Assembly (NCBI GenBank): GCA_030278955.1
Contig: JAOANR010000003.1
Coordinates: 21,847,050-21,911,049 of the forward strand
DNA from: Hygrophila difformis
Taxonomy: Eukaryota; Streptophyta; Magnoliopsida; Lamiales; Acanthaceae
DNA: 64,000 nucleotides
Direction: 5' to 3'
The translations under genes and the position numbers were made by a program. Under the pieces are notes generated by a model. It searched no databases, had not been told where the DNA came from, and was given only the letters and a program-made list of their open reading frames with translations. Below are positions 25,086 through 55,868 of this stretch, in pieces. Position 1 is the stretch's first letter, and every line of letters begins with the position of its first letter.

Positions 25086-25188
25086 GATCCCATTTCAAAC
25101 GCATTTTTTTTACAACACCACAAAATTTTAAAAATGCTAATAAACTCAATAATATATCATACTCCGCAATAATTACACACTAAAACCA

Positions 25189-25293
25189 GGGTCCGGTTAT
25201 GGTGCGATTGAACAAATCCGCAGCACATCAAGGCGAAAATCTTGATCGTCCAATTAAAATCCAAGGGTTGTAAATGCAAAAGGGTAAAGTTGT
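25189..25293 (+). repeat. MULE left terminal inverted repeat
   Basis: It starts GGGTCCGGTTATGGTGCGAT and includes CAGCACATCAAG at 25220-25231 and AAAAGGGTAAAG further in. It is imperfectly complementary to 37040-37153. Confidence 0.75.
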
Positions 25294-25469
25294 CCAATTA
25301 AAATATGTAACGGTTTTATTAATTACGAAATTAACGGATTAGTACGTATCTTTAACGGATTTATTGCATATCTTAAACGGATTTGTATCCTAAAATATCT
25401 TACAACAGAAAAAATCACTAAAAATCACTATGCTTTTATTTTTAGCGAAATTATTAATTCCTAATTAAA

Positions 25470-26480
25470 ACATTATTCTTTTCAGCGATACATCACTATG
25501 CTTCATTTCATCGAGAGTGTAACATTATTTTCAGCGATACAACGTAATTCTTTTCAGCGAGGGAATGTTATTCATTTCAGCGAGAATGCCACATTATTTT
25601 CAGCGATGACTTCAAATTCCTTTCTCCGAGATGTGCATCTAATACACTTTGCAGAGATATTATATCTTTTCAGCGATGCAGAATGCAGGATGCATCATAT
25701 GTTTTTATTTTTAACGAAATTATTAATTCGTAATTACAACATATTACTGTCACAAATTATATTAATTTGTATCATTATTTTCAGCGATACAACATTATTC
25801 TTTTCAGCGATGAATGTCCCTTCATTTCAGCGAGAGTGCGTCATTATTTTCAGCGATGACTTTTGAAAAATAATTGTACACTCTCGATGAAGTGCAATTG
25901 TTTTCGTCGAGATACTACACTTTGCAGAGATATTATATCTTTTCAGCGATGTTTACTACTCTTTTCAGCGATGAATGCTATACTCTTTCAGCGATTTCAC
26001 TTTGTAATTTTCAGCGATACATCATATGTTTTTATTTTTAACGAAATTATTAATTCCTAATTACAACATATTACTGACACAAATTATATTAATTTGTATC
26101 ATTATTTTCAGCGATACATTGTTATTCTTTTCAGCGATATAACTTACTTCATTTCAGCGAGAGTGTGCCATTATTTTCAGCGATGACTTGAAAAATAATG
26201 GTACACTATTGATGAAGTGCAACTGTTTTCTTTAAGATACTATTTTTAACGAAATTATTGATTCCTAATTAAAACATATTAATTTGTATCATTATTTTCA
26301 GCGATACAACATTATACTTTTCAGCGATGGTATGTGCTTCATTTCATCGAGATTGTTCTATTATTTTCAGCGATGATTGAGATTCCTTTAACCGAATACA
26401 CTTTGCAAAAGATGTTATAACTTTTCAGCGATGAACAACTATTCTTTTCAGCGAGTTCACTATGTACTTTTCAGCGATAG
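25470..26480 (+). repeat. Left subterminal array of TTTTCAGCGAT
   Basis: About 26 copies of TTTTCAGCGAT or near variants (TTTCAGCGAG, TTTTCATCGAG) occur in 1 kb, spaced roughly 20-60 bp. A higher-order unit beginning TTTTTAACGAAATTATTAAT recurs near 25437, 25708, 26035 and 26243. All copies read TTTTCAGCGAT on the plus strand, opposite to the rest of the element. This is a likely candidate for transposase or host-factor binding; the function is not known. Confidence 0.85.
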
Positions 26481-26758
26481 AGCATAAAAACCGCAAATCA
26501 CTGAAACAATTCGTAGACACTAAAACCAGTTAAATCCATTCAAAGTTATAAAACATTGAACACCATAAAATCAAACCATAAATCAAAATCACATTCCATT
26601 AAAAATCACAGTCATAACACATCCAAAAACAATCCAAAACATGTTCAACACCACCATTCAAAAAAAGTCATAAAAACATCCAAAAACTTCACAAAGAACA
26701 AGTCATTCCAAAAACATCACAAATTCAAGAGTCATTCAAAACACATTCCAAAAACATA

Positions 26759-27798
26759 TTAAACAGCCGGGATATGAGCTGGATCAGAGATGGCTTCATG
26801 CATCGCCCTAAGCCTATGAATCAGATCTCCCCACATATTTGTAAAAGCCTCTTTGCGTTCTCTCAACTGAGCTGGAGTATTTGCAAATGAGACTTTCACG
26901 CTGCGATAGTGATTTGACATTTCACGCAGCTGTGTGGGATCAAATGAACGTCTGTTGACATCAGCACCATTAGATCTGCCTTCATTTTGGAGGACACCAA
27001 TATGAATGTCCAGAGCTTCAAAGTGGGGATACATGATGTTATAAGATCTTTCAGCAGCCTCAATATCAGGATACTCAGTTATAATTTTCAACAGAAAATC
27101 CTGTGTTTCAACATATAAGAAAGATAGCTTATTAATATATAAGATGTAAATATAAGATACAAAGCAATTCATAGCACTGAAACAATAAGTACAATTGAGA
27201 GAACAAAGTAAATATAAGAAAGAAAACCATAATCAGTACAAAAGCAAACATAATCAGTTCAAAACAATCACTAAAACAACCATAATCAGTACAAAAACAA
27301 TTCATATCACTAAAAAACAACCATAATCAGTTCAAAACAAAATCATTAAAACAACAATAATCAGTAAAAAAACAATTAATAACTAAAACAACCATAAAAC
27401 ACTTAAAAACAACTCATAACCCTAGAACAACCATAATCAGTTCAAACAGTTCAAACATAAAACACTGAAACAATTCGTAACCCTAGAACAACTATAATCA
27501 GTTCAAAAAAGCATTAAAAACCATAAATCAGTTCAAAACAATTCCAACCAAAAGGTTCCTAAGCATACTCAGTTGTAATTTCAATAAGAAATACCTGTGT
27601 TTCAATAAGAATATCCTGATGCTTCTTCGGCACATATCCAGCGTTTAACATTTTTTCTATCAAATCATTCAGTCCGCGCGCATTGTCACACGTGGGATGT
27701 GTGTCCTTCAGATAATTGCCGAACATCTCCCAGCATTGTGTGAACAAGTCGGATGTGCGACTGGAACTCTCTTCGGTGCATCTTCTTTTGGACGACAT
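26759..27798 (-). CDS. MULE ORF D, unknown function, two exons
   Basis: Exon 1 (27798-27595) starts MSSKRRCTEESSSRTSDLF. Exon 2 (27100-26759) ends ISDPAHIPAV, stop. The splice (CAG, then GTATTT; ACACAG at the acceptor) is phase 0 and gives 181 residues without a break. The protein is helical and polar with no domain I recognise; the basic, Ser-rich start could be a nuclear signal. The 494-bp intron is built from repeats of an AACCATAATCAGTTCAAAAC-like unit, and its two ends lie inside a direct duplication (see findings). It is the last gene before the left array. An upstream in-frame ATG exists at 27909, but the ATG at 27798 gives a more typical protein start. It could be an accessory transposition factor or captured host sequence. 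Confidence 0.6.
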
Positions 27799-27989
27799 TT
27801 TTGAGAAATGAAGGTGATTCCGATTACGGTTTTGAGAAATTAGGGTTTTGAGAAACGGTTTAGAAATGAAGATTCGAGAAATGAATGTGATTCCTTTTAT
27901 AAGGCTCACAATTTAAAAAATTTTCCGAGGCCCATTTAATTTTATTTAGGCCCATTTCATTTAGGCCACTCCATAAAAACGAAATATAG

Positions 27990-28640
27990 AACCATCGCTG
28001 AAAACAACATAGACCCATCGCTGAAAACAACTTAGACACATCGCTGAAAACAACATAGACCCATCGCTTAAAAGACTTACCAATCATCGCTGAAAACAAT
28101 ATAGAACCATAGCTTAAAAATGCTATATTCACATTTACAAACATTTTGTTGCTTAAATGAATGTATAAATATGAAATTTTCAGAAAACTCAGAAAAGAGA
28201 AAACATATCCCAAAATGCTTGATGTCCATCGCTCAACATAACTCAGAACTCAGAAACATACATACAAAATCAAAAAACGACGATCTATCACCATCGCTTA
28301 AAATGCTTGCTCTATGTCGCTGAAAAACATACAAAAACATCGCTTAAAATGCCATTTACTCATCGCTGAAAAAGTTGCTCTTGACATCGCTGATAATCAC
28401 ATGTACAAACATAACTCAGAACTCACTTAAATGAATGTATAAATGTGAAATTTCAGAAAACTCATAAAAAGATAAACATATCACAACACATACATAAAAT
28501 CGCATAAAATGCTCATATACAAATCGCTGAAAAATGCTATATACACATCGCTGAAAAGAATACAATTTCATCGCTGAAAAGAATATTCAACCATCGCTTA
28601 AAATGCTTACAACTCATCGCTGAAAAATTGATAATCACAT
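27990..28640 (-). repeat. Motif array between ORF C and ORF D
   Basis: Many copies of ATCGCTGAAAA and ATCGCTTAAAATGC occur on the plus strand (TTTTCAGCGAT with the genes), clustered at 27990-28100, 28290-28400 and 28500-28630. The orientation is opposite to the left subterminal array. No gene is seen in it. Confidence 0.85.
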
Positions 28641-28670
28641 CTACAAACGTTTTCACAAAACTGTTTTCTT

Positions 28671-29264
28671 CTACTTTTGGCCAAACTGTTTATCTACAAA
28701 CCTCAAGTAATCTCTCACAAATTGTGGATTGGTGATCCTCACCAGCATCAGTTCCCATGCTCCTTTTATACGTTTGCAGATTAGACTTCTGAATTTGTAA
28801 TCATAATGCATGATCTTCTTTTTATTTCCTGTGTTACAATAATCCAGGGCCTTCTGATCCATTTCCATGAGGAGTTCGAGATAAGAAATTCTGTAACGCT
28901 CCATCATGGCGGACACCATGTCTCTTTCCAGGGCTTCTTTTAAATAAGACATATCTTGTGCCAGATCATATTTCAGATACTCCTCTGCCTCAGCCTTGTT
29001 CATCAATCTGTACTGTCTTGCATTCTTTCTCAGCACTGGCCAGTTCTTACGCGTTATCTCATGTAACACTTTTTCCCTTAGAAGTCTGATGTGCTCAGCA
29101 TGTTCAGGATCCACATCAGTTCCTTTTTCAGCTATCCCAACCTCAGGATCCACATCAGTTCCTTTTTCAGCTATCCCAACCTGACCGAATCGCTCCAAAT
29201 CAGCCAAATAGAGAATAATACTCCATAATTTACAATGCCCATGTAAGAATAAAGAGATGTACAT
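28671..29264 (-). CDS. MULE ORF C, unknown function
   Basis: This is a 197-codon open frame. The first ~25 residues may be non-coding, because a possible acceptor (TTCGGTCAG) lies just before GTTGGGATAGC, so a missing 5' exon cannot be excluded. The body is charged and helical (EAEEYLKYDLAQDMSYLKEAL, MMERYRISYLELLMEMDQKAL), suggesting a coiled coil, and ends VDKQFGQK. A 39-bp exact tandem duplication (29104-29142, 29143-29181) doubles the peptide VGIAEKGTDVDPE. It starts 168 bp downstream of the Ulp1 stop on the same strand. I do not recognise a domain and assign no function. Confidence 0.5.
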   Translation of the reverse strand: MYISLFLHGHCKLWSIILYLADLERFGQVGIAEKGTDVDPEVGIAEKGTDVDPEHAEHIRLLREKVLHEITRKNWPVLRKNARQYRLMNKAEAEEYLKYDLAQDMSYLKEALERDMVSAMMERYRISYLELLMEMDQKALDYCNTGNKKKIMHYDYKFRSLICKRIKGAWELMLVRITNPQFVRDYLRFVDKQFGQK

Positions 29265-29431
29265 TTAAGCGATCACAAAAAGTGCAATATATATAACCGA
29301 TTAAACAATAGACATTTAACAGATGAAACAATGTACATTTCAGCAACGAAAAATTTACATATACATTTAAGCGATGTCATCCATCGCATAAAAAAAACAG
29401 CTCATTCATTCATCAAAAACACTTCATTTCA

Positions 29432-32400
29432 TCATTGTTTCTTTTTCCGACTCTTTTTTGGCTTAGGTGGTGCTGGTTTCTTTACCTCAAATGACTGACT
29501 ATGCTGGGCAACCAACTGCATCTCTCTACTCACTTCTCCTAGCACAAAATCTTTCTTTTGATTGACATCTGACATCAATATTTCAGCGCAGACCTTGGCT
29601 CTTTTTGCCAGATTATACCTCTTGTTCTTCATTTCTGCCAACATGTCATCCATAATTAATCCTTCCCAATAATCCATATAAGACAAGACAAAAACACCGC
29701 AGCTGTGCTCATCTTTCTGCTCTGCAAGCGGCGAGAAAAGCATGCGATATGATGCAAACCATTTTTCAGATTTCATCAGTGTATTTCCCAGCATCCTCAA
29801 GTTATACCATATCCTATTCAAAACATTATAATCAGCTGTCCACCCGCCTTCAGCATTCTTGCTGTTGAAGTAAAAAATTCTTCTCTTTCTCATATCAACA
29901 GAAAAAGCAACCCAGTGGTTTTGTCGACAATATGGGAAGAAGAACTGGAACATTGAGAAAACATATAATTAGAATCTAAAAATGATCAACAATATAAACA
30001 AAATTATCAAAACAAAAATGTATCTTACACTCTCTGCATTCAACACTACATCAATCATTTCTTCAGGAAAAAACTTGAAATCTTTCACGAATGCATCAAC
30101 AAGTTCTGCACCATCTTTTAATGGTAAATCTGCATCCACCTCTGCCTCTGAAAATGTCTGTTTCAAAAGATACAACATATCATGCATCAAAAAGAAGTTA
30201 AATATATATATATCTATGTATGTATATATATATCAGACTCACAGCAAATAATGATGAAAAATAATATTTCAGAATTGGTTTCCCATTGGCTCTTTCGAAT
30301 TCACGACGGTTGATCACTTTCGCGTAACAGTTTATAACAATATCCGCAATATCACTATCAACCCTCAGTGTTTCGATGTCAAGCTTCGACAAGTTCATTT
30401 CTTGATCATCATAAACAATTGTGTTCTTCGCTTCAACCTTTCCTAGAATATTTGTAATGATTGCCCAAACAGCCACATTCAACTCTTCTGGAGTACAGGT
30501 ATATGACGCCTTAAATTCTGGATATTCTTTAAATCGGGTATAAGTCATATCCATGAATGTAAACTTGTTGCATTTTTCAATAGGCTGGAGATCAATCATC
30601 ATCACTCTAGGAGGCATATACTTCTCCTTCAATTTCTCAATTGTCTTAGCTCTATGAACTGTCTTAGCTTGTTCCTGAAAATTACAGATGATATATCAAT
30701 GATCGCTGAAATATGAAAAGGGTCATCGCTGAAAAACACTTAAATTATCGCTGAAAACTATTGACATACCTCTGGATTCTCATCTCTTACAACATTCTCA
30801 TTCTCGGATAAGCCCAAAGAAAAGGTTGGCACATCTTCTCCATGCATCTATACACATACTAGAGTAAATTAGAGAAAATACCTCTATTTACATCACAATT
30901 GATATAGCTAAAAACTATTAAAACCTAAAGTCACACAAGAAAATATATCATTCACCATGTCCAAATCGCTGAAATGTGAAAGATTTAATCGCTGAAAAAC
31001 ACAGAAACCATCGCTGAAAACTATTAAAGTACCTCTGGATTCTCAGCCACATCATGTGCTGCATCTTTATCAGCCCCATCATGTCCTACATCTTTCTTAG
31101 CCCCATCATGTGCTAACTAAAAAATCACACAAGGAAAATATATCAAAACATTTTGTTACATCACAATTGATATAGCTAAAAACTATTAAAAACTAAAGTC
31201 ACAAAAGAAAATATATCAAATCATATCCAATCGCTGAAATGTGGTCGATATCATCGCTGAAAAACACAGAGACCATCGCTGAAAACTAGTACAGTACCTC
31301 TGCATTCTCAGCCACATCATGTGAAGCATCTTTCTCAGCCCCGTCATGTGCTGTATCTTTCTTTGCCCCATCATGTGCTAACTAAAAATCACACAAGAAA
31401 AATATATCAAAACAGTTTGTTACAATAACCCCTATAGCAAACATTTTGTCACTGTACATACATTCAAGGAATCGAAACTGAAAGGGATTCGGAATCGAAA
31501 TAAAGATCTCTGCAATAAAAATAAACAACACAGAAAAAGCAAAAAAGAAAAAAGAATGTCAGAAACTACCTTCAAAAAATATTATGAAGTACAAAATTTA
31601 TAAAACTACCTTCGGTACATTTTCAGGTAAATTTTCAGTGTCCGGGGCAACTCTCTCTTCAGTTTTGTCTTTTACATTCCCAACATCTGCATCACCTCCT
31701 TCCAGCAAACTTGTCACCTCCGGACCCCCTTGACTCATCACAACATTTCCTGCTCCTGCTAATATACCCATCAAGATTTCTCCTTCGCTTGCAGTTATAT
31801 CAAGATTAGTTGACTGTTCTCCTTCACGACGTCGACCCACATTAATCAACAGTTCACCTGCATCTTGATCACAAGGGGGGTGTGGGGAAGGTTCAACATC
31901 ATTTCTGGATGCTTCTATGAGAGGATCAACATTGCCTGAAGCATCAGCATCCATATATTGGCAAGCAATCTTCAAAATAGAGTCCATTGTGTGATCAGAA
32001 AGATGAACAACTGGTTCAGAATCAGTTGTCTCATTTGCATTAGCTTCATGGACAACAGGTGAATGCATAGGCTGCAAGCTAGAAAGATTGGCAGCTTCTT
32101 CATTTCCACTAGCATTCAAATCCACATTTTCTCCTAACTGCTCATCCCCTCCTCCATCCACACTCCTAGAAAGATTGGCAGTTGGTTCATTTGCAGTAGA
32201 ATTCAAACCCTCATCTTCCACTTCTTTCCCACCCCTCCTTTTCTTCTTTAGACCAGAAACAAAAGTGCTAAGTCGATCGTCATCTTCCTCCACAGTCCTT
32301 TTCGTAACCCTCGATTTCTTCTTAAAGTCAATATCTGGATACTTTGCATTAGGGAAAACCTTCCAGATATCAACCATCTCCAAGTATCGATCCTTTTTAC

Positions 32401-33257
32401 AAGTAAATCCAACCAAATGAAGCTCTTCACGCTCATAGAAATCAAAAAACATGTGCTGAAAAAAACAAAAACAAACAAGATACATAATCAACAAACAATT
32501 ACCATAATCAACAATATATATCACATAACAAATATAAATTGCATAAAAAACACAAAATTAAAAATTACCATTAAGCAAAACAGGTCTCCACAGGGGCGTG
32601 CTTGAGCACTGGTTCCCTTATCCAATTTTGCCTTATACTCATTCAGAGATTTGATAAGAAATTGTCTAATATGAAGACACCAATTGTACCTTAAAGCTTC
32701 TTCCGGAGATCTAAGAAACTGAAGATACCTCTTGTTTACAACCCTCCCTGAGTTAGGAGTAAAGACTTTCTGCAGAGCAAACAAAACATACATCCTCCAG
32801 TAGTCATCCAATGGAATTTCATTATTCTCCGTATTCTCTAAAATAGCTCTAAGATCCTTAACAGGTATCCGATTAGGCTCCTTCTTATTCGTAATAAGAG
32901 AATACTTTTCACAAAATTCATCAGCAAAATCATAACCAATTTCATTATTCTTCAAATCTATTATAAACTTATCAACTCCCCATGGCAAACCATATACTTT
33001 ATGAATGTCTTCATCTGTAAACCTCCATCGACGGTTTTTATCAATAATAAAGCATTCCTCCTGAATGCTCCACTGATTAATAAAGTTATAACAGGATCAA
33101 CCTTGAGCATGCACATTTTGAACATGAGCAGACAACTGAAGCAAGTATCGTGAATAAACTCTTTCTTCCCATCTCCGTCAGTCTCGTTCAGGATATTATT
33201 TAAAAGACAAATGCTAGATGGGACGCAACACACCTGAGTATGCACTTTTTCAGCCAT
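29432..33257 (-). CDS. MULE-borne Ulp1-like (C48) protease gene, one apparent frameshift
   Basis: There are eight exons with all introns in phase 0: 33257-32569, 32455-31610, 31381-31298, 31116-31033, 30847-30770, 30674-30243, 30157-30029, 29944-29432. Joined, they would give about 951 residues. The N-terminal part resembles that of plant transposon-associated Ulp1 proteins (RWRFTDEDIHKVYGLPWG). A one-base frame change is needed near 33085, between VDPVIT and INQWSIQEECF. Exon 2 encodes an acidic, low-complexity linker. Exons 3 and 4 are duplicates (AHDGAKKD repeats). The catalytic domain has NHWVAFSVDMRKRRIFYFNS and QKDEHSCGVF: His ~791, Gln ~857 and Cys ~863 are present, but the Asp position (~808) is Asn. 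Ulp1 enzymes remove SUMO. Its role in the MULE is unknown and activity is doubtful. Confidence 0.75.
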
Positions 33258-33835
33258 TCTTGATAAACAAAAAGTAAAGTATCACCGTTCGCCGTTCGCC
33301 GTAGAAAAACAATCGCCGTTCGCCGTAGACGCAGAGAATCGCTAAAATCGCTGAAAAGCCCTAGAGAAAGTATCGACAGTGATAAATTGAAAATTGGCGG
33401 TTAAATTGACATTAAATACTACACGGTGAAATCTCGACGGTTATTTCTTATTAATTACTTAGACGGTTATTTTTTATTAATTACGCGAATTCTGAAAAAA
33501 CATTGTAAAATTTTTATTAACTACTACACTGTTATTTTTTATTAACTCATCTCCATCGCTGAATTGCACTGTGACGATCGCTTTTTATCATTTCTTATCA
33601 TCGCTGAATTGCATTCTTTACGCGATTTTCTGAGACATTGTAACATTTTCTTATTAAATACTACACGGTTATTTTTTTTATTAAAACTAACTTTCATCGC
33701 TGAATTGCATAACGATCATCGCTTTTATATATAAGTAATCATCGCTGAATTGCATTAGTTATCACTGAACTAAGTCGATCAATACAATATTAATGAACAA
33801 TACACTTCATGTCATTTCTAAAAAAACAAAAAACT
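33258..33835. promoter_or_regulatory. Intergenic region between transposase and Ulp1 genes
   Basis: It presumably holds the transposase 3' end and the Ulp1 promoter. A short direct repeat (CGCCGTTCGCCGTAGA) lies near 33285-33325. Repeats of ACTACACGGTTATTTTTTAT and of ATCGCTGAATTGCAT (a motif variant, about four copies) fill 33400-33770. A TATA-like TTATATATAAAA (minus) lies near 33730 but is far from the Ulp1 start. Confidence 0.5.
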
Positions 33836-36800
33836 TCATTTCTGCATCCGTTTACGATGTTCTAACTCTTTCTTTTTCCGAACAGCTTCAGAAATAGAGA
33901 CCATTCTCTTGTTCGATTTCTTCCGCCCTTTACAAGTTTCTCTTTCCCTTAAATGCAAATTTGAGTAATCTGATGTACTTCCAATCTCTGCAAAAAAAAA
34001 AACAAAAACATTGAGAAACACTAATTTCAAAAAAAGCAAAAACATAAATATGTCTTTGATTAGAAATTACCCGACTCTTTGTTAATATCAATGTTGTCAT
34101 ACTTTGTTTTCATCAATGTCTCAAAGTCATACATAAACGATTCACAAGCATCCTCATTTCGTGACAACACAATTGCTGATTTCAAAAACAAGCCACACAA
34201 TTTCCGGTATCTAGATGCTGCATTGACCACATTTGTTTCTTTTCCAACACCAACATCAACATAACTAAGATCACATTTTGCATTCCTTGACCACCGCCGC
34301 AAAATATATTTATCTGGAATAGTATGAAACACTTTTGCTCCACTTCCTGACAGAATATCCATCACCCTCAGAGCATGACAACATAAAATCCCCATATTCT
34401 CAAACATATTGCAACTGCATCCAATTGTACCATCATCAATGTTAACATTCACATGATCACCAATCAACTTTGAATCTGCATCTTCTCTCTTGCAAACACG
34501 ATAAATTAATGCATCTGGTTGAAGCTCAACCACATACCCAAATGACAAATCATACTCATTGTTGAAAATATTGAACACATTTGGTGTGTACTTCTCAGCT
34601 ATATATTTCAATAGTGGATTCATAATAAACCTGGCAGAAACTTGTCTATCATCTGCCTTAAAATCTTCCATCCGTTCATTATCCCTCCTTGACTCCACAA
34701 CCCTTTCAAAATGTGCAAAGAACTCAACATAGTTATCAACTGGCCTTAAGAACCTGTGAAATGTCAACACAATATGGGGATGTGAAAATCAAATTCTCAA
34801 CTACATAGAGCAAACACACATCGCTGAAATAAATAGAACACTCTCGCTGATCAAAACAGTATCGTCTCGCTGAAAATAACTATTCAACTATCGCTGAAAA
34901 CGAAATTTATTCATACCGTTTCACAACTGAGTTAAAAGATTCACTTAGCTGAGTAGTCCTCATTCCTGCAGTAAAATGATTTTTAACCCAAGCAGCGGAC
35001 CATTGACTTCTCAAATTATAAGTAGTCGACAACCACCTATGTTCAGATTGTGAGAAACAAGTTGATAGCATGTATTCCCATTCCACCTCAAATTCCATCT
35101 CTGTCCTCACATCATATACCAAATGATGAAATAGCTTATCAAACCTAAAAAAATGAGTTCAACATGTACATATCAATATCCAAAATCGAAAAAACAATTG
35201 AAAGTAAAAATAACTAAATATTTACCTTGGTGTGTACAGTTGACTCAAATTTTTTTTCGCATTTTCTATAATGTGCCAACTGCATAAAGCATGATAGGTA
35301 TTAGGCAAAATTTTCCTAATTGCCGGTGCCATCGCACAATCTTGATCTGTGAAAATCGTTTGAGGTGCCTTATCCCCCATACACTTCAAAAATGTTTTAA
35401 ATAGCCACTCAAATGATCTTTGAGTTTCATCAAGCATCAATGCAGCTCCAAAAATAGAAGTCTGTCGGTGATGATTGAATCCAACAAAAACAGCTAATGG
35501 TCTGTAATTTTTATTTGTCCGATACGTTGTATCAAAGGTCACACTATCACCAAAAGCTTGATAATCCATCCTCATTTCAGCATCTGACCAAAAGATATTT
35601 GTAATTCTCTCATCATCATCCAGATCATACTCATGGAAGAAAAATGGATTACTGACACATTTCTCAGAGAAATACTTCAATACAACACCAGCATCCCCTA
35701 CTTTTAAATTTCTTTGCCGCCTTCTAACAAGTGCATTCTTCAAATCGTCCTTTAAAAATCCTACAAGTCCACTACCTCCAGCACCCATACTCAACAAGTC
35801 ATACGATGACTTCAATGACAATCCAACTTCTTCATGTATACCAGCAACAACACTGTGTAACTCATCAACTCTTCTATTCGATTTCAACATATGCTTCCTT
35901 GATGGTCCATGCAGATCATGATTATGATCACCACAGAAAAACACAACTCTATAAACTTTTTCATCAGTTTTATAATGTAACCTCACCTTTGCTTCACAAC
36001 CAGTTCGGGTTTCATCACTCCTACGAAATTTCAGACTCTTAGAACGACAAGATGAATCACTATCCAACAAACAACCACGACGAAAACCTTCCTTATTGCA
36101 CGCATATTGTAAATAGAACAATCTATCAACTTCATGTGGCTTTGGTCTCTCATACATTTTCCTTACCGAGAAACCTAAACTATGAGCATAATCACAATAA
36201 AACCTAAACGCATCATCAGCTGTAACAAAACTTAACTCACTCCAATTTATGTTGCCTGTGAAGAAATAAACAAAGAATTCCCATTAAAATAATAAATACA
36301 CGTAGCTGACATAAACCATCGCTTAAAATGCTTAACGTCCATCGCTGAAAATGCTAGACAGTTCTCGCTGAAAAAGCTAGAAATACATCGCTGAAAATAC
36401 TAGGCATGCATCGATGAAAATATAATGGTTCTATCCCTCATAATCACATGTACAAACGTTTTGACGCTTAAATGAACATATAGATATGAAACTTCAGAAA
36501 ACACAAAAAAACAAAAAAAAAAAAAAGAAACATATCAAAGAAGAACTCAAAAACGCTAGTCAGTTATCGCTGAAAATGCTAGTGATGCATCGCTGAAAAT
36601 GCTAAGCGTTCATCGCTGAAAATATAATGGTTCAGTCCCTCATAATCACATGTGCAAACGTTTTGACGCTTAAATGAACATATAGATATGAAACTTCAGA
36701 AAATACAAAAAAAGAGAAACATATCAAAAGAAGAACTCAAAACTCAAAAAACATACATAAAATCAAAAACGACGATCTGCGATAAAAATACTCAAAATTC

Positions 36801-36885
36801 CAAAATGCTAAAAAGTACCATTGGACGCAGAACTCGAATCTGAAAACGTTGCCGACGCATTCAACGACATGCTAATCGCATTCAT
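33836..36885 (-). CDS. FAR1-type MULE transposase, intact
   Basis: The five-exon model is 36885-36819, 36255-35226, 35144-34917, 34753-34071, 33987-33836. It totals 2160 nt, encodes 719 residues and has no stop. Domains in order: a FAR1/WRKY-GCM1-type zinc finger (residues ~30-140, CEAK.. and FFCGDHNHD); the MULE DDE domain with Asp in TFDTTY (~264), Asp in FTDQD (~326), CSWH (~347) and Glu in LSESFNS (~434); a SWIM finger CSC..CCH (~554-568); and a basic tail KGRKKSNKR..RKKK, probably nuclear targeting. It cuts and joins the element at its TIRs. FAR1/FHY3 host regulators derive from this family, but the location inside the TIRs shows this one is the transposon's own. The start is the less certain part: the frame is open to 37029, and a second Met follows at residue 6. 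Confidence 0.88.
36310..36640 (-). repeat. Motif cluster upstream of or within transposase intron 1
   Basis: About nine ATCGCTGAAAA-type motifs (plus strand) sit in two near-duplicate blocks (around 36317-36430 and 36555-36630), each followed by CATAATCACATGT and ACGCTTAAATGAACATATAG. They fall in intron 1 (36818-36256) of the transposase model. Confidence 0.8.
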
Positions 36886-37039
36886 AATTGCCAACAACTT
36901 CCTCACACCGCCGCAACACGTACACAGCAAACAAAACACAGAAGAGAACTTGTCACCAAAAAAAAAAAAAAACAGAAGAGAACTCGGAAATCCAAAGAAG
37001 ACGACGTCCAACGGCGAACAATATGGCAAATATATGAAA

Positions 37040-37153
37040 TTACTTTTCTACCCTTAGAGTTAATCTCAATCGTCGATTTTTAAAGACAATCAACGGCTGT
37101 AAATGCCCACAGCACATCAAGTCAAAAAGGGTGATTGCACCCTAACGAAATTG
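37040..37153 (-). repeat. MULE right terminal inverted repeat
   Basis: On the minus strand it starts CAATTTCGTTAGGGTGCAAT and includes AAAAATCGACGATTG and AAGGGTAGAAAAG. It pairs with 25189-25293. Confidence 0.75.
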
Positions 37154-37219
37154 CTAAAACCAAGTATCCCACGCTAGGTATGGATTTACTTTCCTAAATT
37201 AATAATTACTAGTAATACT

Positions 37220-45129: not shown

Positions 45130-46349
45130 CACTACAAGAAAAAGTCAGTTTAGCGACCGAAATTCGCGACCGAAAATTTTTGGTCGCTATTACCGACCGC
45201 ATTAGCAACCGAATTTTTCTGTCGCTACTTTGCCGACCGAATTAGCGACCGAAATTTTCTGTCGCAATTTAACGACCGAAATAGCGACCGCAACGCATTT
45301 GGTGGCTACCTGGCGACTAAAATCCAATCCGCGACCGAAATAGCGACCGAAACTTTCGGTTGCTAATCCAATTTCCAATTTTTTTTATTTTTTTTTAAAA
45401 AAATCTTTTCAAATATACGTTTACCGACCGAATTAGGGACCGAAAATATTCAGTCACAAACTAGCGACCGAATTCGCGACCGAAAATTCGGTCGCAAATC
45501 TTTTTACATAATTTTATTTTTTTATTTTATTTTAATTATTTTTTTTATCTTTTTAATTTTAATTATTTTTCCTGAATTAAATTTTCTTTTAATTTATTTT
45601 ATATTTATATATTAAATTTTATTTTAAATATTTAATTTAATTAATGTTGGATTTAATATGTAATTTTTAATTTTAATTATTGAATTTAATATTTTTATAA
45701 TTAAAAGTTTTTAGTTTAATTAATATTTAATAATATTGATTTCAGGTTTTTTGAATTTTATTAGTGATTTAATTAATTTGATCCATTTAATTTAATTTTA
45801 TATTTTATTTATTTAATCAATTATTCAATTATTTATTTAACTAATATAATTTTTTGATTTTATTATTTAAGTTATTAATTTACACATTTATACAAATATA
45901 TATTATATATAAAACACATTGCATAAGATGACATGAAATTGTGAGTAGCCGAATGGCATGCGCGCGCAGTGGGAGGTCAACAGGACCTTGGTTCGAATCC
46001 CCTCTTCAACACACTTGGGGAGGAATTAAAATATATCACATGTGGCAGGATTTCATTGGTGATTCGGAGGGTTGGTACAGGTGGTTAGGGCTGGGGATGA
46101 TGATGATGAGGTTGTGGGCTCGAGTTTCGCGACCGCAATTTCGGTCGCTAAAATAAAAATTAATAAAATAAAAAATTTAAATTTTCGGTCGCGAAAATTA
46201 GCGACCGAAAAATGCGGCCGCAGTTTCGGTCGCGAAAATCCGACCGAAAAAATTCGGTCGCGAATTCGGTCGCTTACCCTGTTAGCGACCGAATTTTGAG
46301 GCTTAGCGACCGAATTTTTCGGTCGATAAACTGGATTTTTCTTGTTGTG
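45130..46349. mobile_element. Non-autonomous CACTA element, TSD TTG
   Basis: The ends are CACTACAAGAAAAAGTCAGTT and the complement CACAACAAGAAAAATCCAGTT, with the 3-bp duplication TTG (45127-45129, 46350-46352): the CACTA (En/Spm) hallmarks. Both ends carry dense GCGACCGAA/TTCGGTCGC subterminal repeats (about 20 in all). The centre is very AT-rich. A tRNA-like stretch with GGTTCGAATCCCC lies near 45995-46008, followed by a second SINE-like block. No transposase remains. Confidence 0.85.
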
Positions 46350-49548: not shown

Positions 49549-49610
49549 GTGGGAATATTAGTATTCCTTGTAATATAGATTATTTCCTAACAAACACTAG
49601 TTAAAAGAGC

Positions 49611-51691
49611 ATGCTGGGGGGAGGGAGAATTCCGGCGGAAGGGTGGAAGCAGGGAAGTAGGAGAACTGTGGGGAAGGCAGATGTCATGGGATGGAGGAGT
49701 GTAGGAGGTGGCAGGGCCAAAATCAGGAATAATCTGGTGGGGGTTTTCGTCGGGAATGTACCACTGGAAGTGCCAAACAGCAAGCTGCTGAAGGAGATTG
49801 GTGAGGTGGCAAAGGTGAGGGATTGGTTCATACCGCGTAGAAGATGGCCTGAGAATGGTTTCAAGTTTGGGTTTTTTCGTTTCCAAAGTAAGGAGGAGGC
49901 GGAGAAGGTTATGCGATGTATGCATAGGAGGTCCATGTCGGGGAGAATGTTGAGAGTCAATAGAGCCCACCCAGACCATAGAACTGGAACAAGTGTTGAA
50001 CCTATCAAGAAAAGGGTTTCTCTCCAGAGCAATCAGATTAAGGTAGGGGCTACACAAGGGAGTCGACCGATGAGCTCTAAGGATGCATGGCATGATGGTA
50101 GATCCTACGCTGAGGTCACAAAAGGGTTGAAAGTTACGGAGAAAATGGTGGGGAAGGTTAAGGGTTTGAACCCGATATGTCTGGAGGAGGTGAAGAAGGA
50201 CTCAAAAAGGCTGGAGGAAGCAGTAGCGGTTGAATTAAGGGAGTTCGACAAGCTGGTAGTCTTTCAAGATTGGTTGTACCAGGAATACGTAGAGTGTGAG
50301 GAGGTGATTTATGGCGGAGGCCTAATGGTGCTGCTGGCCTTCAGAGAAGCTGATGCTAGAGACAAATTTTTAGCAGATAGTAGAGACCGGGACATGATTG
50401 TATGGAAACGTAGATGGTTGCCGGGAATGGTGGCTAGGAGTCAGTTGATATGGTTATATGTTTTTGGTCTCCCTTTTAATGCATAGAGTAAAGATAATTT
50501 CCAGAGAATGCTCCAGGGATGGGGGAAGGTGATAACAGTTGATAGTGATACAAAAAATAAAAAGAGGCTTGATAGGGCTAGGTTGTTGGTGGAGTTACAG
50601 GGCGACGTTAACATCCCATCGAAATTGAAAATCCAAGTGGGAACAAAGGTGTTATTTGTTAAACTAGTAGGAAATTTCAGTGAGGCTGTCATTGTCGAGG
50701 ACCTTCGGGGGGAGGCGCTGGAAACTGAGCACAGGAGTGTGGAAGCGAGTTCGGGGTCGATGCCGGAGGCAGCGAAAGTATTGGGATCTCCGGCTAGGAG
50801 AACTGAGACGAGGGCCTGGACTAAGAAACATGGGGAAGTGGAAAAAGCTCAAGAGGTGGAGTATGGGGAATCTCATTATTTGAAAAATTCGGCTGCAATG
50901 AAAACAGACATAATCATGGAAGGAACGAGTGGTTCCCAAGAAGGTGGAGGGGTTTCTGATAGTAAGGTGGTGGGCCTAATTGGGGGCGATGGGCCTGGAA
51001 ATAGTGGGCTTCAAAATTTTTTGGCAGTGGGGGACTGGGCTGAGAAAGAAAATGAGGCAATGGTCGGAAAGGAAGTTCCAAGGGAGGAAGGCAGCTTAAT
51101 TGGTAACGGGCTTGTACACTGCGAAAAAGTTGTCCAAATAGATGTAGAAGGTAATGGGGATGGCGGTTGGAGGAAGGCCTAACAACGAGTGAACAATCTG
51201 TAGATTGGATAGTCGAAGGAAATCGGGATGCGAGGGAGGTTGAGGTGTTGGCTAGTGAGGGTGGGGTTTCGAACTCAGTTCTAGGGAGCGGGGAGGAGCA
51301 GGGGAGTAGGCCGAGCGTTGGTAACCAGCCGAGGGGGGTTGAGGAGACAGAAGGGGTGAGTTCGACGAAGGATAGGGAGGCTAGAGAAGCCATGGAGAGA
51401 TTGATTATAGAGAGATTGGGTTTGAGAAAGAGGGGTCGCAAGAGAGGCAAGATGGGCGGCTGTAGTGCGAACGGCAGGATAACTTCAGGACAGGCGATCA
51501 GAAGAGAGGTGAGCGATGATTTTGCAGTGCTGCAACTATACACAGTCTGGGAAAAGGATCGAGTGAAGGTTATGGATCTCACGGAGGTAGATGAAACTTT
51601 GAAAATTGCGGATGTGTTGGGGTTGGGTTGCTTGGTGGGGAGAGATTCTGCACTGGAGAGAATTAGAGAAGAGGTGAACAGCGAGTCTTAG
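49611..51691 (+). pseudogene. LINE ORF1 with RRM, broken
   Basis: The frame starts MLGGGRIPAEG and has an RRM at residues ~45-125: VGVFVGNVP (RNP2-like) and FKFGFFRFQS (RNP1-like). It binds the LINE's RNA in related elements. A TAG at 50484-50486 sits where a Trp is expected (LPFNA, stop, SKDNF). The same frame continues to 51180-51182, where a frame change is needed to reach the true end at 51691 (EEVNSES). The second half is Glu/Gly-rich and low in recognisable domains. Two lesions remove function. Confidence 0.8.
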
Positions 51692-51732
51692 TTGGATGTT
51701 CGGGGGGTCGGATTGTGGAATTAAAACTTGTC

Positions 51733-54700
51733 ATGAAGATCATTACATGCAATTTGAGGGGGTTGAATGGAGGTGTGAGGAGGAGGGCAGTGATGAGGTT
51801 GTGCAAGAGGAATAGACCTACTGTGGCGTGTTTTCAAGAAACTAAAATGGAGGTAATCAGAGATAGACTTGTTTATCGGCTTTGGGGATCTAGGGAGTGT
51901 GAATTCTGCTTTGTGCCGTCGGAGGGGAATGCAGGTGGTTTGTTGGTGGTATGGGATACCAGGTCAGGGAGTCTTTCTGTGGTGGAGACGGGGCATAATT
52001 TCATTTGTGTCAAGGGTAGATTTATAGGTCTGGATGGGGTTGTCAATTTGGTGTGCGTGCACGCTCCGAACAACAGGCGGGAGAGAGCGATTTTCTAGGA
52101 GATGTTGTCTCAGAAATGCAACACTGCGGATGGTAATTATTGGTGCCTGACAGGGGATTTTAACGCGGTGTTAGGGGTGGAGGAGAGGATTGGGGAGAGT
52201 GATGATGTCGGCTCGTCTAGAGATTTCAGGGAGTTCGTAGATAGTGTGGGGGTGGTAGATTTGCCGATGGAGGGAGGACAATTTACATGGTTCGGTAGGG
52301 GCGGAAGAGCTTGGAGTAGATTAGACAGATTTCTGGTGTCACCTAATTGGCTTTGTTTGGAGGGTTGAGTGATTCAGAAGAAAAGGGAGTCGGTTTCATC
52401 TGACCATTATCCGGTGTTGTTGCTGATGGGTGAGAAAGAGTGGGGTCCCAAACCGTTCCGCCTTTACAACTATTGGATGGAGGACGCGGGGTTCTCTGAT
52501 TTGGTGAATATTGCTTGGACAGAGACACGGCTGAATGGGAGGTGCAAGTTGATTAGTAAACTAAAAGCTCTGAAATTAGCTATCAAGAGTTGGGACGGGT
52601 ATAGTGCGGCGGGTCTTGAATCTCGAATTAAAAATCTTCAAGAGGAAATTGAGGAGATCGAATCAAATTTACAGGGTGGTAATGGAGAGGAGGGAGACAG
52701 GGAGTCATGGGGTAACAAGCAGAGGGAGCTTAAGAAGTTGTTATTGGACGACGAACGAAGATGGCACCAAAAGTCAAGGTTAAAATGGATTAAAGAGGGA
52801 GACCTTAATACAAATTTTTTCCATGTGGTTACATCAATGAACAGGCGGAGGAAACATATTTGTGTCATTCGAGTCGGGGAGGCTGTCATCGAAGAGCCCA
52901 GAAGGATTAAAGAAGAAGCATTTTCCTTTTTTCAAGGGATGTTCTCTAAATGTAAGGGAGAAATCTTTCATGTGGAAGGGATTGGGTTGCCGAAGGTGGG
53001 AGAGTCTGAAAGGAGCTCGATGGTGAGGAATTTTGTAGAAGAGGAAGTCAGGGATGTGGTTTGGGGGTGCGATGGGAATAAAGCTCCGGGACCGGACGAC
53101 TTCAATCTTGGCTTTTTCAAGAAGTATTGGGAAGTAATTAAAGGCGAGGTGTTAGAGGTTTTCAAAGGGCTGGAGACAGATTGTTCACTACCAAGAGAGA
53201 TAGGCAATTCTTTTATAGCTCTCATCCCCAAGGTTGAAAGTCCTACGACGTTTGGGGAGTTCTGACCTATCTCGCTTGTGGGGAGTATTTATAAGATAGT
53301 GGCAAAGGTTCTGGCAAATAGACTAAAGGAAGTACTTGGCAGGGTTGTTGGAAATTCCCAAATGGCCTTCGTTAAAGGCCGACAAATTTTGGATGGCGTA
53401 TTGTTAGCAGCTGAAATCATTAATTCTACTCAGATATCCGGGAGAAGGGGTTTCGTGATAAATTAGACTTCGCGAAGGCATACGATAATGTCTCCTGGGA
53501 GGCACTAATTAGAGTGTTAGAGTCGATGAACTTTGATGGGAAATGGATCAGCTGGATCAAAGCCTGCGTCTGTTCGGCTGCTGCTGCGGTCCTAATAAAC
53601 GGCTCGCCTACGAACTTCTTCAAGTTCAATAGGGGGCTTCGACAGGGAGACCCGCTCTCTCCCTACCTATTTGTTTTGGTAGTAGAAATTCTTAACAGAT
53701 TGTTGGTAAAGGCTGGTAATTTGGGACTGATCAGGGGGCTGGAGGTGATAAGGGGCGGACATGTCATCTCCCATTTGAAATATGCTGATGACACTTTGTT
53801 ATTTTGTGAAGGAGGGATCCACCAGGTTATCATGTTCAAAAGAATCCTGAGGTGCTTTTCCCTAGCCACAGGGTTAAGGATTAACTACGGGAAAAGTAGG
53901 CTATATGGAATAAATTGCTCCCAGGAACTCGTAGGCGAGGCTGCTGGAGTACTGGGCTGTGGTGTAGGCGACTGGCCAATGAATTATTTGGGCATCCCAG
54001 TTGGGGGTCGGTTGAATGGGATGAAGATTTGGGAACCGGTTCTTGAAAAGGTGGAGAAAAGGTTGGCGGGTTGGAAAGGTAGATTGCTATCTCAAGCAGG
54101 ACGGGTTTGCTTAATTAACTCGGTTGTAAGTTGTCTCCCCACATATTATCTATCAGTCTTTAAGATCCCGAAAGTGGTGGCGGAGAGGATAGAACAGTTG
54201 AAAAGAAAATTTTTTTGGAACGAATGGGGCGGAGTAAGGAAAATGCATACAATTAATTGGGAGGTTATAGGTATGTCGAAGGAGGATGGGGGTTTAGGTA
54301 TGAGAAATGTCCAAGATCTTAACAGTGCACTCCTATTAAAGTGGAGGTGGCGTTTCGGGGTGGAACAGGCTGGTTGGAAGGATATAATTGATGAAAAATA
54401 CTATAATCAGTCCAATCCATTGATTCCCCGGATTATTAGAAGTAGGTCAACATGGGGAAATATTTGCAACGTGTGGGAAAGGATGGCGATGGACGGTGGC
54501 AGTGGTAACTTTGCTATTCAAGTAGGAAATGGTCGCCGGACTAGATTTTGGTTGGACAATTGGATAGAGGGAGGATTAGCGTTGAAAAATACTTTCCTCA
54601 GGATATATGCTTTGTCTGTTAAGAAGGATGGGTGGATTTGTGAGTATGGCGAATGGAATGGTGTTGAATGGTGTTGGAAGGTAGAGCTGAGGAGACCTCT

Positions 54701-55868
54701 TTTTGATTGGGAAATTGGTATTTGGGAAAGTCTAATGAATGTGCTGCAACAACAAAAATTGAACAGGTTTTTGGATGACAGGGTGAGATGGAAAAAGGAG
54801 GCAAACGGGATTTTTTCAATTCGGTCCTGCTGGAATATTAACTCTGTTGTGAACGAACACAGGTGGTTCTGGAAGAATTTATGGAAAACTAAATGCCCAG
54901 CTAAGGTTAAATTGCTAGTTTGGAAAATCATGAGAGGAGGCCTGCCAGTCCGATCTCTGTTAGTAGCTAGAGGGTGCTTGGGAGAGGTGCAGGACGTGTG
55001 CCCTACTTGCGGTAGTAATTCTGAAACTCTTGATCATTTGTTCGGAAAGTGTGAGGTATCTAGCAGGTTATGGTACGCTGGGGTGGGCTGGTTTGATGTC
55101 AAATGGTCATTGCCAGGAAGGGTAAAAGATCTACTTGAATGGTGGGTTGGATTCAACCCCGGGAGGGGAAGAAGGGAAGCATGGATGCTTACGGGGTTAG
55201 CTATTGTCTGGTCGACCTGGAAGTTAAGGAATGAGGTGTTGTTCAAGGGACTGCAAGTCGATATCAGGTCGGTGATAGAGGAAGTCAGGTGGAGAGTGGG
55301 AACTTGGTGGCAGGTGAGTCTAGGAGGTGTTGGGGTCAGTATGGCAAGTCTGGATGTGGAGTTCCCTGGTAGTCTGTCGTGTCTACAAATTGGTAGTAAT
55401 AAGGTGAATCGAGGAGGTTTGGTGTGGGTACGCCCGGACGAGGGCTGGTGGAAAATTAACACGGACGGGTCATCTTTGGGGAACCCGGGGCCAGCTGGGA
55501 TTGGAGGTGTTATTAGGAATGATATTGGGGAGGTTATATTTGTGCTAGCAGATTCGATAGGGTGCACGGATTCCACGGAAGCTGAAGTCACAGCAATTAG
55601 TAGGGTATGCAGGGCTCTTATTCGTGATCAAGGGTTTCCACTCCCTAAATTATTATTTGAATGCGACTCAAAAAATGTGGTGCTGTGGTTGAAGGAGCCG
55701 GAGAAATTACCATGGAGACTATATAACTTGTTAGAACCGATTTTGGCCATTTTCCGGTGTGCAGGTGTAATTCGAGTGGAGCATATCTTAAGGGAAAGAA
55801 ATATCCTGGCGGATGCATGGGCTAGGAAAGGCGCGGTCGGTGAAGAAAAATTGGAGGAATGGTATTGA
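51733..55868 (+). pseudogene. LINE ORF2: endonuclease, RT, zinc-binding, RNase H; broken
   Basis: Order of domains: an APE-type endonuclease (MKIITCNLRGLN, FQETKME, GDFNAVL, SDHYPV); a reverse transcriptase ([27 protein letters not shown], catalytic YADD near 53785); a zinc-binding domain (CPAKVKLLVWKI, CPTCG..LDHLFGKC); and RNase H (INTDGSSLGNPG, TEAEVTA, FECDSKNVV, NILADAWAR). Breaks: TAG 52096-52098, TGA 52366-52368, TGA 53263-53265 (where PISL is normally preceded by Arg), and a frame change near 53460 just before [12 protein letters not shown]. The RT to RNase H part (53514-55868, 784 codons) is one clean frame. An alternative start is at 51715. Confidence 0.88.

What the first reader, a model, noticed from the sequence alone, without database searches (positions are those of the whole stretch)
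25180..37162. Complete ~12-kb MULE with an intact transposase and three further genes
A 9-bp exact target duplication (CTAAAACCA), TIR tips aligned in register and a five-exon transposase whose exon lengths sum to 2160 nt without a stop are seen directly. FAR1-type MULEs and Ulp1-carrying MULEs are known. An element that combines both with two more unrecognised genes and motif arrays is unusual and may be recently active.
Basis: partly seen in the sequence, partly recalled or inferred. Interest (0 to 1): 0.88.

Follow-up and report, generated by a model that had tools for sequence, protein, structure and literature searches.

The report
Young jumping gene with motif arrays
This is a recently multiplied plant jumping gene that carries its own moving enzyme, a SUMO-protease-like gene and dozens of evenly spaced copies of one short DNA word, a layout resembling the one other jumping genes use to switch off the plant's silencing.

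Summary
In detail: window 25189-37153 is a complete 11,965-bp Mutator-like element (MULE) flanked by CTAAAACCA. At least 117 copies were scored in its own genome (915 Mb). Of 20 sampled, 19 have both ends, and all 19 have an exact private 9-10-bp target duplication; one insertion has an empty counterpart. The inverted repeats are degenerate. The transposase is FAR1-MULE-SWIM type (719 aa) and open. The Ulp1-domain gene of this very copy is frameshifted by a 1-base deletion absent from the 18 others.

The motif arrays are the main feature. TCGCTGAAA occurs 53 times in the window, always inside the element, always in modelled non-coding DNA, mostly 23 nt apart. Among 14 copies the linkers between motif cores are hypervariable (62 of 603 positions; other non-coding 89 of 4,730); the cores are not (3 of 477).

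Best reading (about 0.55): an element-encoded protein binds the arrays and counteracts silencing, as VANC proteins do on Arabidopsis VANDALs. It is not shown to be a VANDAL: the transposase type differs and no DUF1985 was detected. Jittery-like MULEs with ULP genes are known from grapevine. Arrays in this class and the linker hypervariability were not found in the papers searched. Binding and methylation are untested.

The parts
25180..25188 (.). left target-site duplication CTAAAACCA
37154..37162 (.). right target-site duplication CTAAAACCA
25189..37153 (.). the whole element, 11,965 bp; both tips found in 19 of 20 sampled copies
25189..25212 (+). left tip GGGTCCGGTTATGGTGCGATTGAA, degenerate inverted repeat at nt 8-20
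37129..37153 (-). right tip, reads CAATTTCGTTAGGGTGCAATCACCC from outside
33836..36885 (-). transposase gene, modelled exons 36885-36819, 36255-35226, 35144-34917, 34753-34071, 33987-33836; 719 aa; FAR1, MULE and SWIM domains
29432..33257 (-). Ulp1-domain gene (VANC-like in layout), modelled exons 33257-32569, 32455-31610, 31381-31298, 31116-31033, 30847-30770, 30674-30243, 30157-30029, 29944-29432; 951 aa in a sibling copy (longest of 16 open splice combinations tried); frameshifted in the window copy by a 1-base deletion near 33,080
28671..29264 (-). gene 2, up to 197 aa, no Pfam family; true start uncertain (29264 or 29003): two copies have stops at codons 13-14
26759..27798 (-). gene 1, modelled exons 27798-27595 and 27100-26759, 181 aa, no Pfam family above its cut-off
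25480..26477 (+). left array: 24 exact TTTCAGCGA, often 23 nt apart
27995..28625 (-). array between gene 1 and gene 2: 10 exact motifs (TCGCTGAAA on +)
30703..31284 (-). three triplets of the motif in three introns of the Ulp1-domain gene; two of them lie in a 265-bp tandem duplication
33348..33356 (-). single motif upstream of the Ulp1-domain gene
34821..34899 (-). three motifs in transposase intron 3
36342..36621 (-). six motifs (two triplets) in transposase intron 1

Best explanation
A recently amplified MULE of the FAR1/Jittery type that carries its own sequence-specific recognition system. Shown: ends with TSDs, many near-identical copies, one empty site, an open transposase frame, and 53 copies of TCGCTGAAA (wider consensus ATCGCTGAAAA), all in modelled non-coding DNA of the element, in arrays with a dominant 23-nt spacing, with hypervariable linkers between stable cores. 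Inferred: a protein encoded by the element binds the arrays as a row of evenly spaced molecules and keeps or makes the element free of silencing marks, so that the transposase gene is expressed and the ends are accessible. The Ulp1-domain protein is the likeliest binder (rival binders: gene 1, gene 2, the FAR1 domain of the transposase). In the DNA read here the motif occurs only in this family, so the effect would be limited to its own copies. A copy with a broken Ulp1-domain gene, such as the window copy, would be served in trans by others.
For: 53 of 53 exact motifs lie in the element's 5,810 non-coding bp, 0 in 6,155 coding bp and 0 in the other 52 kb of the window; first-order Markov controls of the element give a mean of 0.13, maximum 1, in 30 runs; 0 hits in 45,787 bp of flanks of the 19 copies, about 3.5 kb of it the window's own flanks. 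Spacing of 23 nt is by far the commonest: 36 of 59 same-strand neighbours within 120 nt when one mismatch is allowed, 423 exact pairs over the 19 copies. Introns, intergenic spacers and one terminal region carry arrays, as described for VANC21 targets (PMC5735166, passages). In 14 copies cores vary at 3 of 477 positions, linkers at 62 of 603 (p = 3e-13); cores vary somewhat less than other non-coding DNA (89 of 4,730, p = 0.04). Ulp1 peptidase domain E = 1.7e-7. Ulp1-bearing VANC genes with motif-specific hypomethylation are reported for KIU VANDALs (review PMC13317346, passages). Degenerate TIRs accompany VANC genes in VANDALs (PMC10398659, passages).
Against: No binding, expression or methylation data. 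No DUF1985 detected: Pfam gives none, and exon 1 of the Ulp1-domain gene scores 0.3 bits against a profile of 8 short DUF1985 stretches of the same genome, below the best of 500 shuffles at 10.1 (a small profile, so a weak test). The transposase has a FAR1 N-terminus. Core conservation is modest: cores vary no less than coding DNA (p = 0.37 with 14 copies, 0.61 with 19) and only nominally less than other non-coding DNA (p = 0.04 and 0.03); the sharp contrast comes from fast linkers. 23 nt is 2.19 turns of B-DNA at 10.5 bp per turn, so successive sites are about 69 degrees apart, not on one face. pN/pS of the Ulp1-domain gene among young copies is 0.73, not significantly below 1 (p = 0.23). Five of 19 sampled copies, the window's included, have this gene broken, so it is not needed in cis. 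The genome-wide motif search did not complete.
Confidence: 0.55

Rival explanations
1. The arrays are transposase-binding (subterminal) sites: the FAR1 domain or an accessory protein binds them to bring the ends together, as TNPA does with the subterminal motifs of En/Spm (recalled).
For: 24 of 53 motifs lie 0.3-1.3 kb from the left end and 6 within 0.9 kb of the right end, and they read inward TTTCAGCGA from both ends. The transposase has a FAR1 DNA-binding domain.
Against: The other 23 of 53 motifs sit deep inside the element, between genes 1 and 2, upstream of and within the Ulp1-domain gene and in transposase intron 3; the outermost 291 bp on the left and 532 bp on the right have none.
Confidence: 0.25
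2. The arrays are ordinary tandem repeats kept alike by slippage and inter-unit conversion, without any binding protein. Repair between mispaired units changes linkers (which differ between units) and leaves cores (identical in all units) untouched.
For: Derived linker bases match the adjacent unit more often than expected: 19 of 41, expected 13.5, p = 0.036; a cruder test that ignores base composition gives 41 of 81 against one third, p = 0.0014. Copies show array gains and losses. Cores are only nominally less variable than background, as this reading predicts.
Against: Five separate arrays in two orientations share one core. 0 of 53 motifs are in coding DNA. Tandem repeats without the motif (gene 1 intron) vary at only 1.2%. 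54 of the 62 variable linker positions are isolated changes, not tracts. Units 46 nt away (0 of 4) and distant ones (43 of 128, expected 46.5) show no excess match.
Confidence: 0.12
3. The arrays are promoters or enhancers read by host factors that drive the element's genes; the Ulp1-domain gene serves another purpose, such as removing SUMO or SUMO-like tags from chromatin proteins.
For: Arrays or single motifs lie near the 5' part of the transposase gene, the Ulp1-domain gene and gene 1. The Ulp1 His, Gln and Cys are present, with Asn at the place of Asp (read from the alignment; which residues are catalytic, and that Asn can serve in this protease clan, is recalled).
Against: 24 motifs lie downstream of the last gene, beyond any promoter in the models, and others are in introns.
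Confidence: 0.08

Closest known systems
Jitvine-1 and Jitvine-2 of grapevine (Jittery-like MULEs; PMC2528002, passages)
   Same: The paper lists 11.9 and 14.4 kb with a dash where other families have a TIR length; it says that some Jittery-like families carry an ULP sequence downstream of the transposase (which of the two is not said in the passages seen). Same gene order here.
   Different: No sequence comparison was possible (searches found no relatives). Motif arrays are not mentioned in the passages seen.
VANDAL21/Hiun and VANC21 of Arabidopsis (PMC5735166, PMC10398659, passages)
   Same: MULE with degenerate TIRs and extra genes; one short motif in tandem arrays in introns, intergenic and terminal non-coding DNA; rapid array turnover.
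   Different: VANDALs and Jittery are separate groups (45 and 36) in a MULE phylogeny (PMC6446971, passages); the motif differs (YAGTATTAY); VANC has DUF1985, not detected here; here the candidate carries Ulp1.
KAONASHI (KI/KIU) MULEs of Arabidopsis (PMC13317346 and PMC2528002, passages)
   Same: Non-TIR MULE with an Ulp1-domain gene; reported motif-specific hypomethylation of its own kind.
   Different: ULP in reverse orientation to the mudrA gene; here a FAR1-type transposase and an Ulp1-domain gene in the same orientation.
En/Spm TNPA system of maize (recalled, no call)
   Same: Element-encoded protein binding short repeated motifs, tied to both transposition and reversal of methylation.
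   Different: CACTA superfamily, motifs near the ends.

Membership tests
MULE superfamily | 8-11-bp target duplication | tested here: met
   9-10 bp exact in 19 of 19 copies with both ends
MULE superfamily | MULE transposase domain with DDE | tested here: met
   PF10551 E = 1.6e-27, 96.2 bits against a cut-off of 27.6; candidate D, D and E in VTFDTTYR, FTDQDCAM, QLSESFNS (their role is recalled)
FAR1/Jittery-type MULE | N-terminal FAR1 domain, SWIM finger | tested here: met
   PF03101 58 bits (cut-off 28.1), PF04434 25.9 bits (cut-off 19.6)
FAR1/Jittery-type MULE | groups with Jittery in a transposase tree | not tested
   no plant transposase set was at hand
VANDAL | VANA transposase of the VANDAL clade | tested here: inconclusive
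   FAR1 N-terminus points elsewhere; no tree made
VANDAL / VANC | DUF1985 domain in the anti-silencing protein | tested here: not met
   of 150 DUF1985 places scored in the genome (889 candidates) none lies in the window
VANDAL / VANC | dense short-motif arrays restricted to the element's non-coding DNA | tested here: met
   met within the window and the copies' flanks; genome-wide restriction not tested, the search did not complete
VANDAL / VANC | protein binds the motif and removes methylation in trans | not testable with these tools
   needs binding and methylation data
KI-MULE (Kaonashi) | Ulp1 (Peptidase_C48) domain in an extra gene | tested here: met
   PF02902 31.7 bits, cut-off 20.7
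KI-MULE (Kaonashi) | ULP in reverse orientation to a mudrA transposase | tested here: not met
   same strand, FAR1-type transposase

The most novel reading that the evidence does not exclude
The 23-nt units are built so that the protein-binding part (about 13 nt) is kept while the 10-nt linker changes about five times faster than the rest of the element's non-coding DNA. The element may use this as an escape from 24-nt small-RNA silencing: each new copy soon differs from its sisters within the siRNA-length stretches of its control DNA, yet keeps its binding sites. A FAR1-type MULE would thus have reached a VANC-like anti-silencing system without a recognisable DUF1985, independently or by exchange of modules.
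Probability: 0.25. Interest if true: 0.82.

Novelty: new variant of a known kind. Interest (0 to 1): 0.62.

Why it matters
If the arrays are anti-silencing targets, such systems are not limited to VANDALs with DUF1985 but occur in another MULE type that has multiplied very recently in a large plant genome. The young copies (about 0.5% apart) also give a nucleotide-scale picture of how such target arrays change while an element is active: cores stable, linkers racing. That makes the published idea that target divergence is an escape from RNA-directed methylation (PMC10398659, passages) directly testable by comparing linkers with mapped siRNAs.

Tried and rejected
Protein search of 5.8 billion sequences with the Ulp1-domain protein, gene 2 and gene 1: none scored; that the collection holds few plant proteins is my guess. 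AlphaFold of one stretch of the Ulp1-domain gene (mean pLDDT 47.6) and of gene 2 (40.0): too poor to use, no fold search made. tRNA and Rfam scans of the window: nothing. Empty site for the window's own insertion: only its two halves and partial matches among 40 scored of 243 candidates. Empty sites of the 19 copies were sought only in the DNA already fetched, which gave one, for c13 in the flank of c17. CpG decay: 1 of 53 motif CpGs, 13 of 113 other non-coding, 9 of 115 coding show a transition (motif against other non-coding p = 0.04); suggestive only. A special mutation spectrum in linkers: rejected, transitions to transversions are 23:39 in linkers and 42:48 in other non-coding DNA (p = 0.25); both differ from coding DNA, 50:24. 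Alignment artefact as the cause of linker variability: it stays with 19, 14 and 11 copies and with isolated changes only. Assembly error: many linker variants are shared by several copies. Helical phasing: 23 nt is not a whole number of 10.5-bp turns.
Full report
WHAT WAS CHECKED. The finding names a complete MULE at 25180-37162. The sequence shows the 9-bp duplication and the tips. The tips resemble each other in register only at nt 8-20 (11 of 13), which is more than chance (8 of 20,000 shuffles; 55 of 20,000 random window pairs) but far from a classical long TIR. A search of the window's own genome (915 Mb, 246 contigs) with transposase exon 2 scored 117 places of 1,581 candidates, at 96-100% identity; 36 have the top score and 106 of 117 have no stop inside (counts read from its table). 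Stretches around 20 of those 36, the window's among them, were fetched. Nineteen have both ends; all 19 have an exact private duplication, 17 of 9 bp and 2 of 10 bp. One of them (c03) has an internal deletion of 3.6 kb; the 20th (c02) is rearranged and gave no left end. A twenty-first copy (L060/L040) was fetched in part, gave no left tip and is in no count. The joined flanks of copy c13 match, over 298 of 300 bases and across the junction with a single copy of the duplicated target, a stretch in the flank of copy c17 at 84% identity: an empty site.

GENES. The transposase model has exons 67, 1030, 228, 683 and 152 nt, 2160 with the stop, with FAR1, MULE and SWIM domains above Pfam's cut-offs. 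The second long gene (951 aa in copy c04, the longest of 16 open splice combinations) has an Ulp1 peptidase domain (Sentrin-specific protease 2 as a weak PDB match, E = 0.0007, in which His, Gln and Cys are kept and the Asp place is Asn). In the window copy this gene has a 1-base deletion not shared by the other 18 copies. Over the 19 copies the transposase is intact in 19 (they were chosen for exon 2), the Ulp1-domain gene in 14, gene 2 in 14, gene 1 in 17; 10 copies have all four. pN/pS among these young copies is 0.55, 0.73, 0.49 and 0.39 for transposase, Ulp1-domain gene, gene 2 and gene 1; only gene 1 differs nominally from 1 (p = 0.046, one of five tests). Gene models are predictions; no transcript was seen.

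MOTIF ARRAYS. The most enriched 9-mer of the element against the rest of the window is TCGCTGAAA: 53 exact copies, all in the element, all in modelled non-coding DNA. If placed at random in the element, 53 of 53 in non-coding DNA would have a probability of 2e-17 (copies within an array are not independent, so this is only a guide). The wider consensus is ATCGCTGAAAA, with A at 45 of 53 on either side. With one mismatch allowed, 36 of 59 same-strand neighbours within 120 nt are 23 nt apart; over the 19 copies exact cores lie 23 nt apart 423 times, 22 nt 76 times, 24 nt 38 times, 46 nt 104 times. The left array reads TTTCAGCGA on the plus strand, the other 29 motifs on the minus strand, so the motif reads inward from both ends. 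Between units the linker bases are mixed at every place, with some preferences. Motif numbers differ between copies: 42 to 55 exact cores, with array gains such as an insertion of 665 bases in c16 that repeats array DNA, and one of 356 bases in c10 that carries motif-bearing and gene 2 DNA.

CORES STABLE, LINKERS FAST. In 14 copies without larger array indels (5 of 19 dropped: c03, c09, c13, c16, c19), 3 of 477 core positions, 62 of 603 linker positions, 89 of 4,730 other non-coding and 73 of 6,155 coding positions vary. With all 19 copies: 7, 82, 150 and 123. Linkers against other non-coding DNA: p = 1e-21 and 3e-23; cores against other non-coding DNA: p = 0.04 and 0.03; cores against coding DNA: no difference, p = 0.37 and 0.61. 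So the sharp signal is fast linkers; constraint on cores is only suggested. Each of the five arrays shows fast linkers on its own (p from 0.018 to 1e-10). Singletons alone show it for linkers (38 of 603 against 72 of 4,730, p = 7e-11); for cores singletons are not significantly rarer than background (3 of 477, p = 0.16 with 14 copies; 5 of 477, p = 0.07 with 19). Parsimony gives 0.174 changes per linker site, 0.035 for other non-coding, 0.021 for coding, 0.015 for cores, and 18 of 82 variable linker sites need more changes than the minimum. The variable zone is about 10 nt, the quiet zone about 13 nt (core plus some 4 nt after it; profile), and the peak is 9-11 nt from the motif centre. The mutation spectrum of linkers does not differ from other non-coding DNA. 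Motif-free tandem repeats in gene 1's intron vary at 1.2%. I see three causes that may add up: constraint on cores, faster mutation or favoured change in linkers, and repair between mispaired units; the last has weak support. I cannot separate them with 19 copies.

HOW IT MOST LIKELY WORKS. Steps shown: ends, duplication, empty site, multiplication, open transposase frame, arrays, their pattern of change. Steps inferred: transposase acts on the degenerate ends; an element protein reads the arrays; reading them lifts silencing. The closest tested case is VANC21, which binds a short motif arrayed in the same orientation in introns, intergenic and terminal regions of VANDAL21 (PMC5735166, passages), where targets diverge rapidly and RdDM attacks the same regions (PMC10398659, passages). 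A review states that Ulp1-carrying VANC genes (KIUs) act likewise on their own kind (PMC13317346, passages, citing Sasaki 2022, which is not held and which I have not seen; that it deals with density and periodicity of the motifs is recalled).

MEMBERSHIP. It is a MULE, of FAR1/Jittery type by domains (no tree was made). It is not shown to be a VANDAL: DUF1985 was tested and not met, with the reserve that the profile was small and one search scored 150 of 889 candidates. It resembles one in layout only. The nearest printed relatives by description are Jitvine-1 and -2. Searches for prior reports listed none that by its title or shown abstract describes motif arrays in Jittery/FAR1-type MULEs, but the library lacks most subscription papers, Sasaki 2022 among them.

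LIMITS. The sample of copies is drawn from the top of the list by transposase identity, so age and intactness lean young. With mean pairwise 0.56% in ordinary non-coding DNA and 7e-9 substitutions per site and year (recalled, Arabidopsis) the sample's age is about 0.4 million years. The host species was not identified; that it is a plant is inferred from the gene families. The genome-wide motif count did not complete. The E-values and p-values treat sites as independent.

Noticed in passing
window 25480-36621, linkers between motif cores: Linkers vary about five times more than other non-coding DNA among near-identical copies, while cores vary no more than background.
   Followed up: partly
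own genome G000, e.g. C8:59596523, C12:34492794, C15:24589972, C4:31511497 (L061-L068): 150 DUF1985 places scored, all over Pfam's cut-off, with open frames of several lengths: other candidate VANC-bearing elements live in the same genome; their arrays were not read.
   Followed up: partly
window 49605-55868, + strand: Open frames that look like a non-LTR (LINE-type) retrotransposon with reverse transcriptase (named from reading, no family search).
   Followed up: no
window 45201-45290 and 46184-46273: About 40-bp tandem units rich in GCGACCGAA / TTCGGTCGC, on opposite strands about 1 kb apart: maybe the ends of another DNA element.
   Followed up: no
copy c10 (insertion after window position 33827) and copy c16 (after 28285): Insertions of 356 and 665 bases that carry DNA found elsewhere in the element, as expected from template switching during gap repair (for c10 read by eye from the printed insert).
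   Followed up: partly
window 31033-31381: Two exons of the Ulp1-domain gene are a tandem duplication together with their motif-bearing introns (265-bp unit), coding for repeats such as AHDGAKKD; tandem peptide repeats are also reported for VANC proteins (PMC5735166, passage).
   Followed up: no
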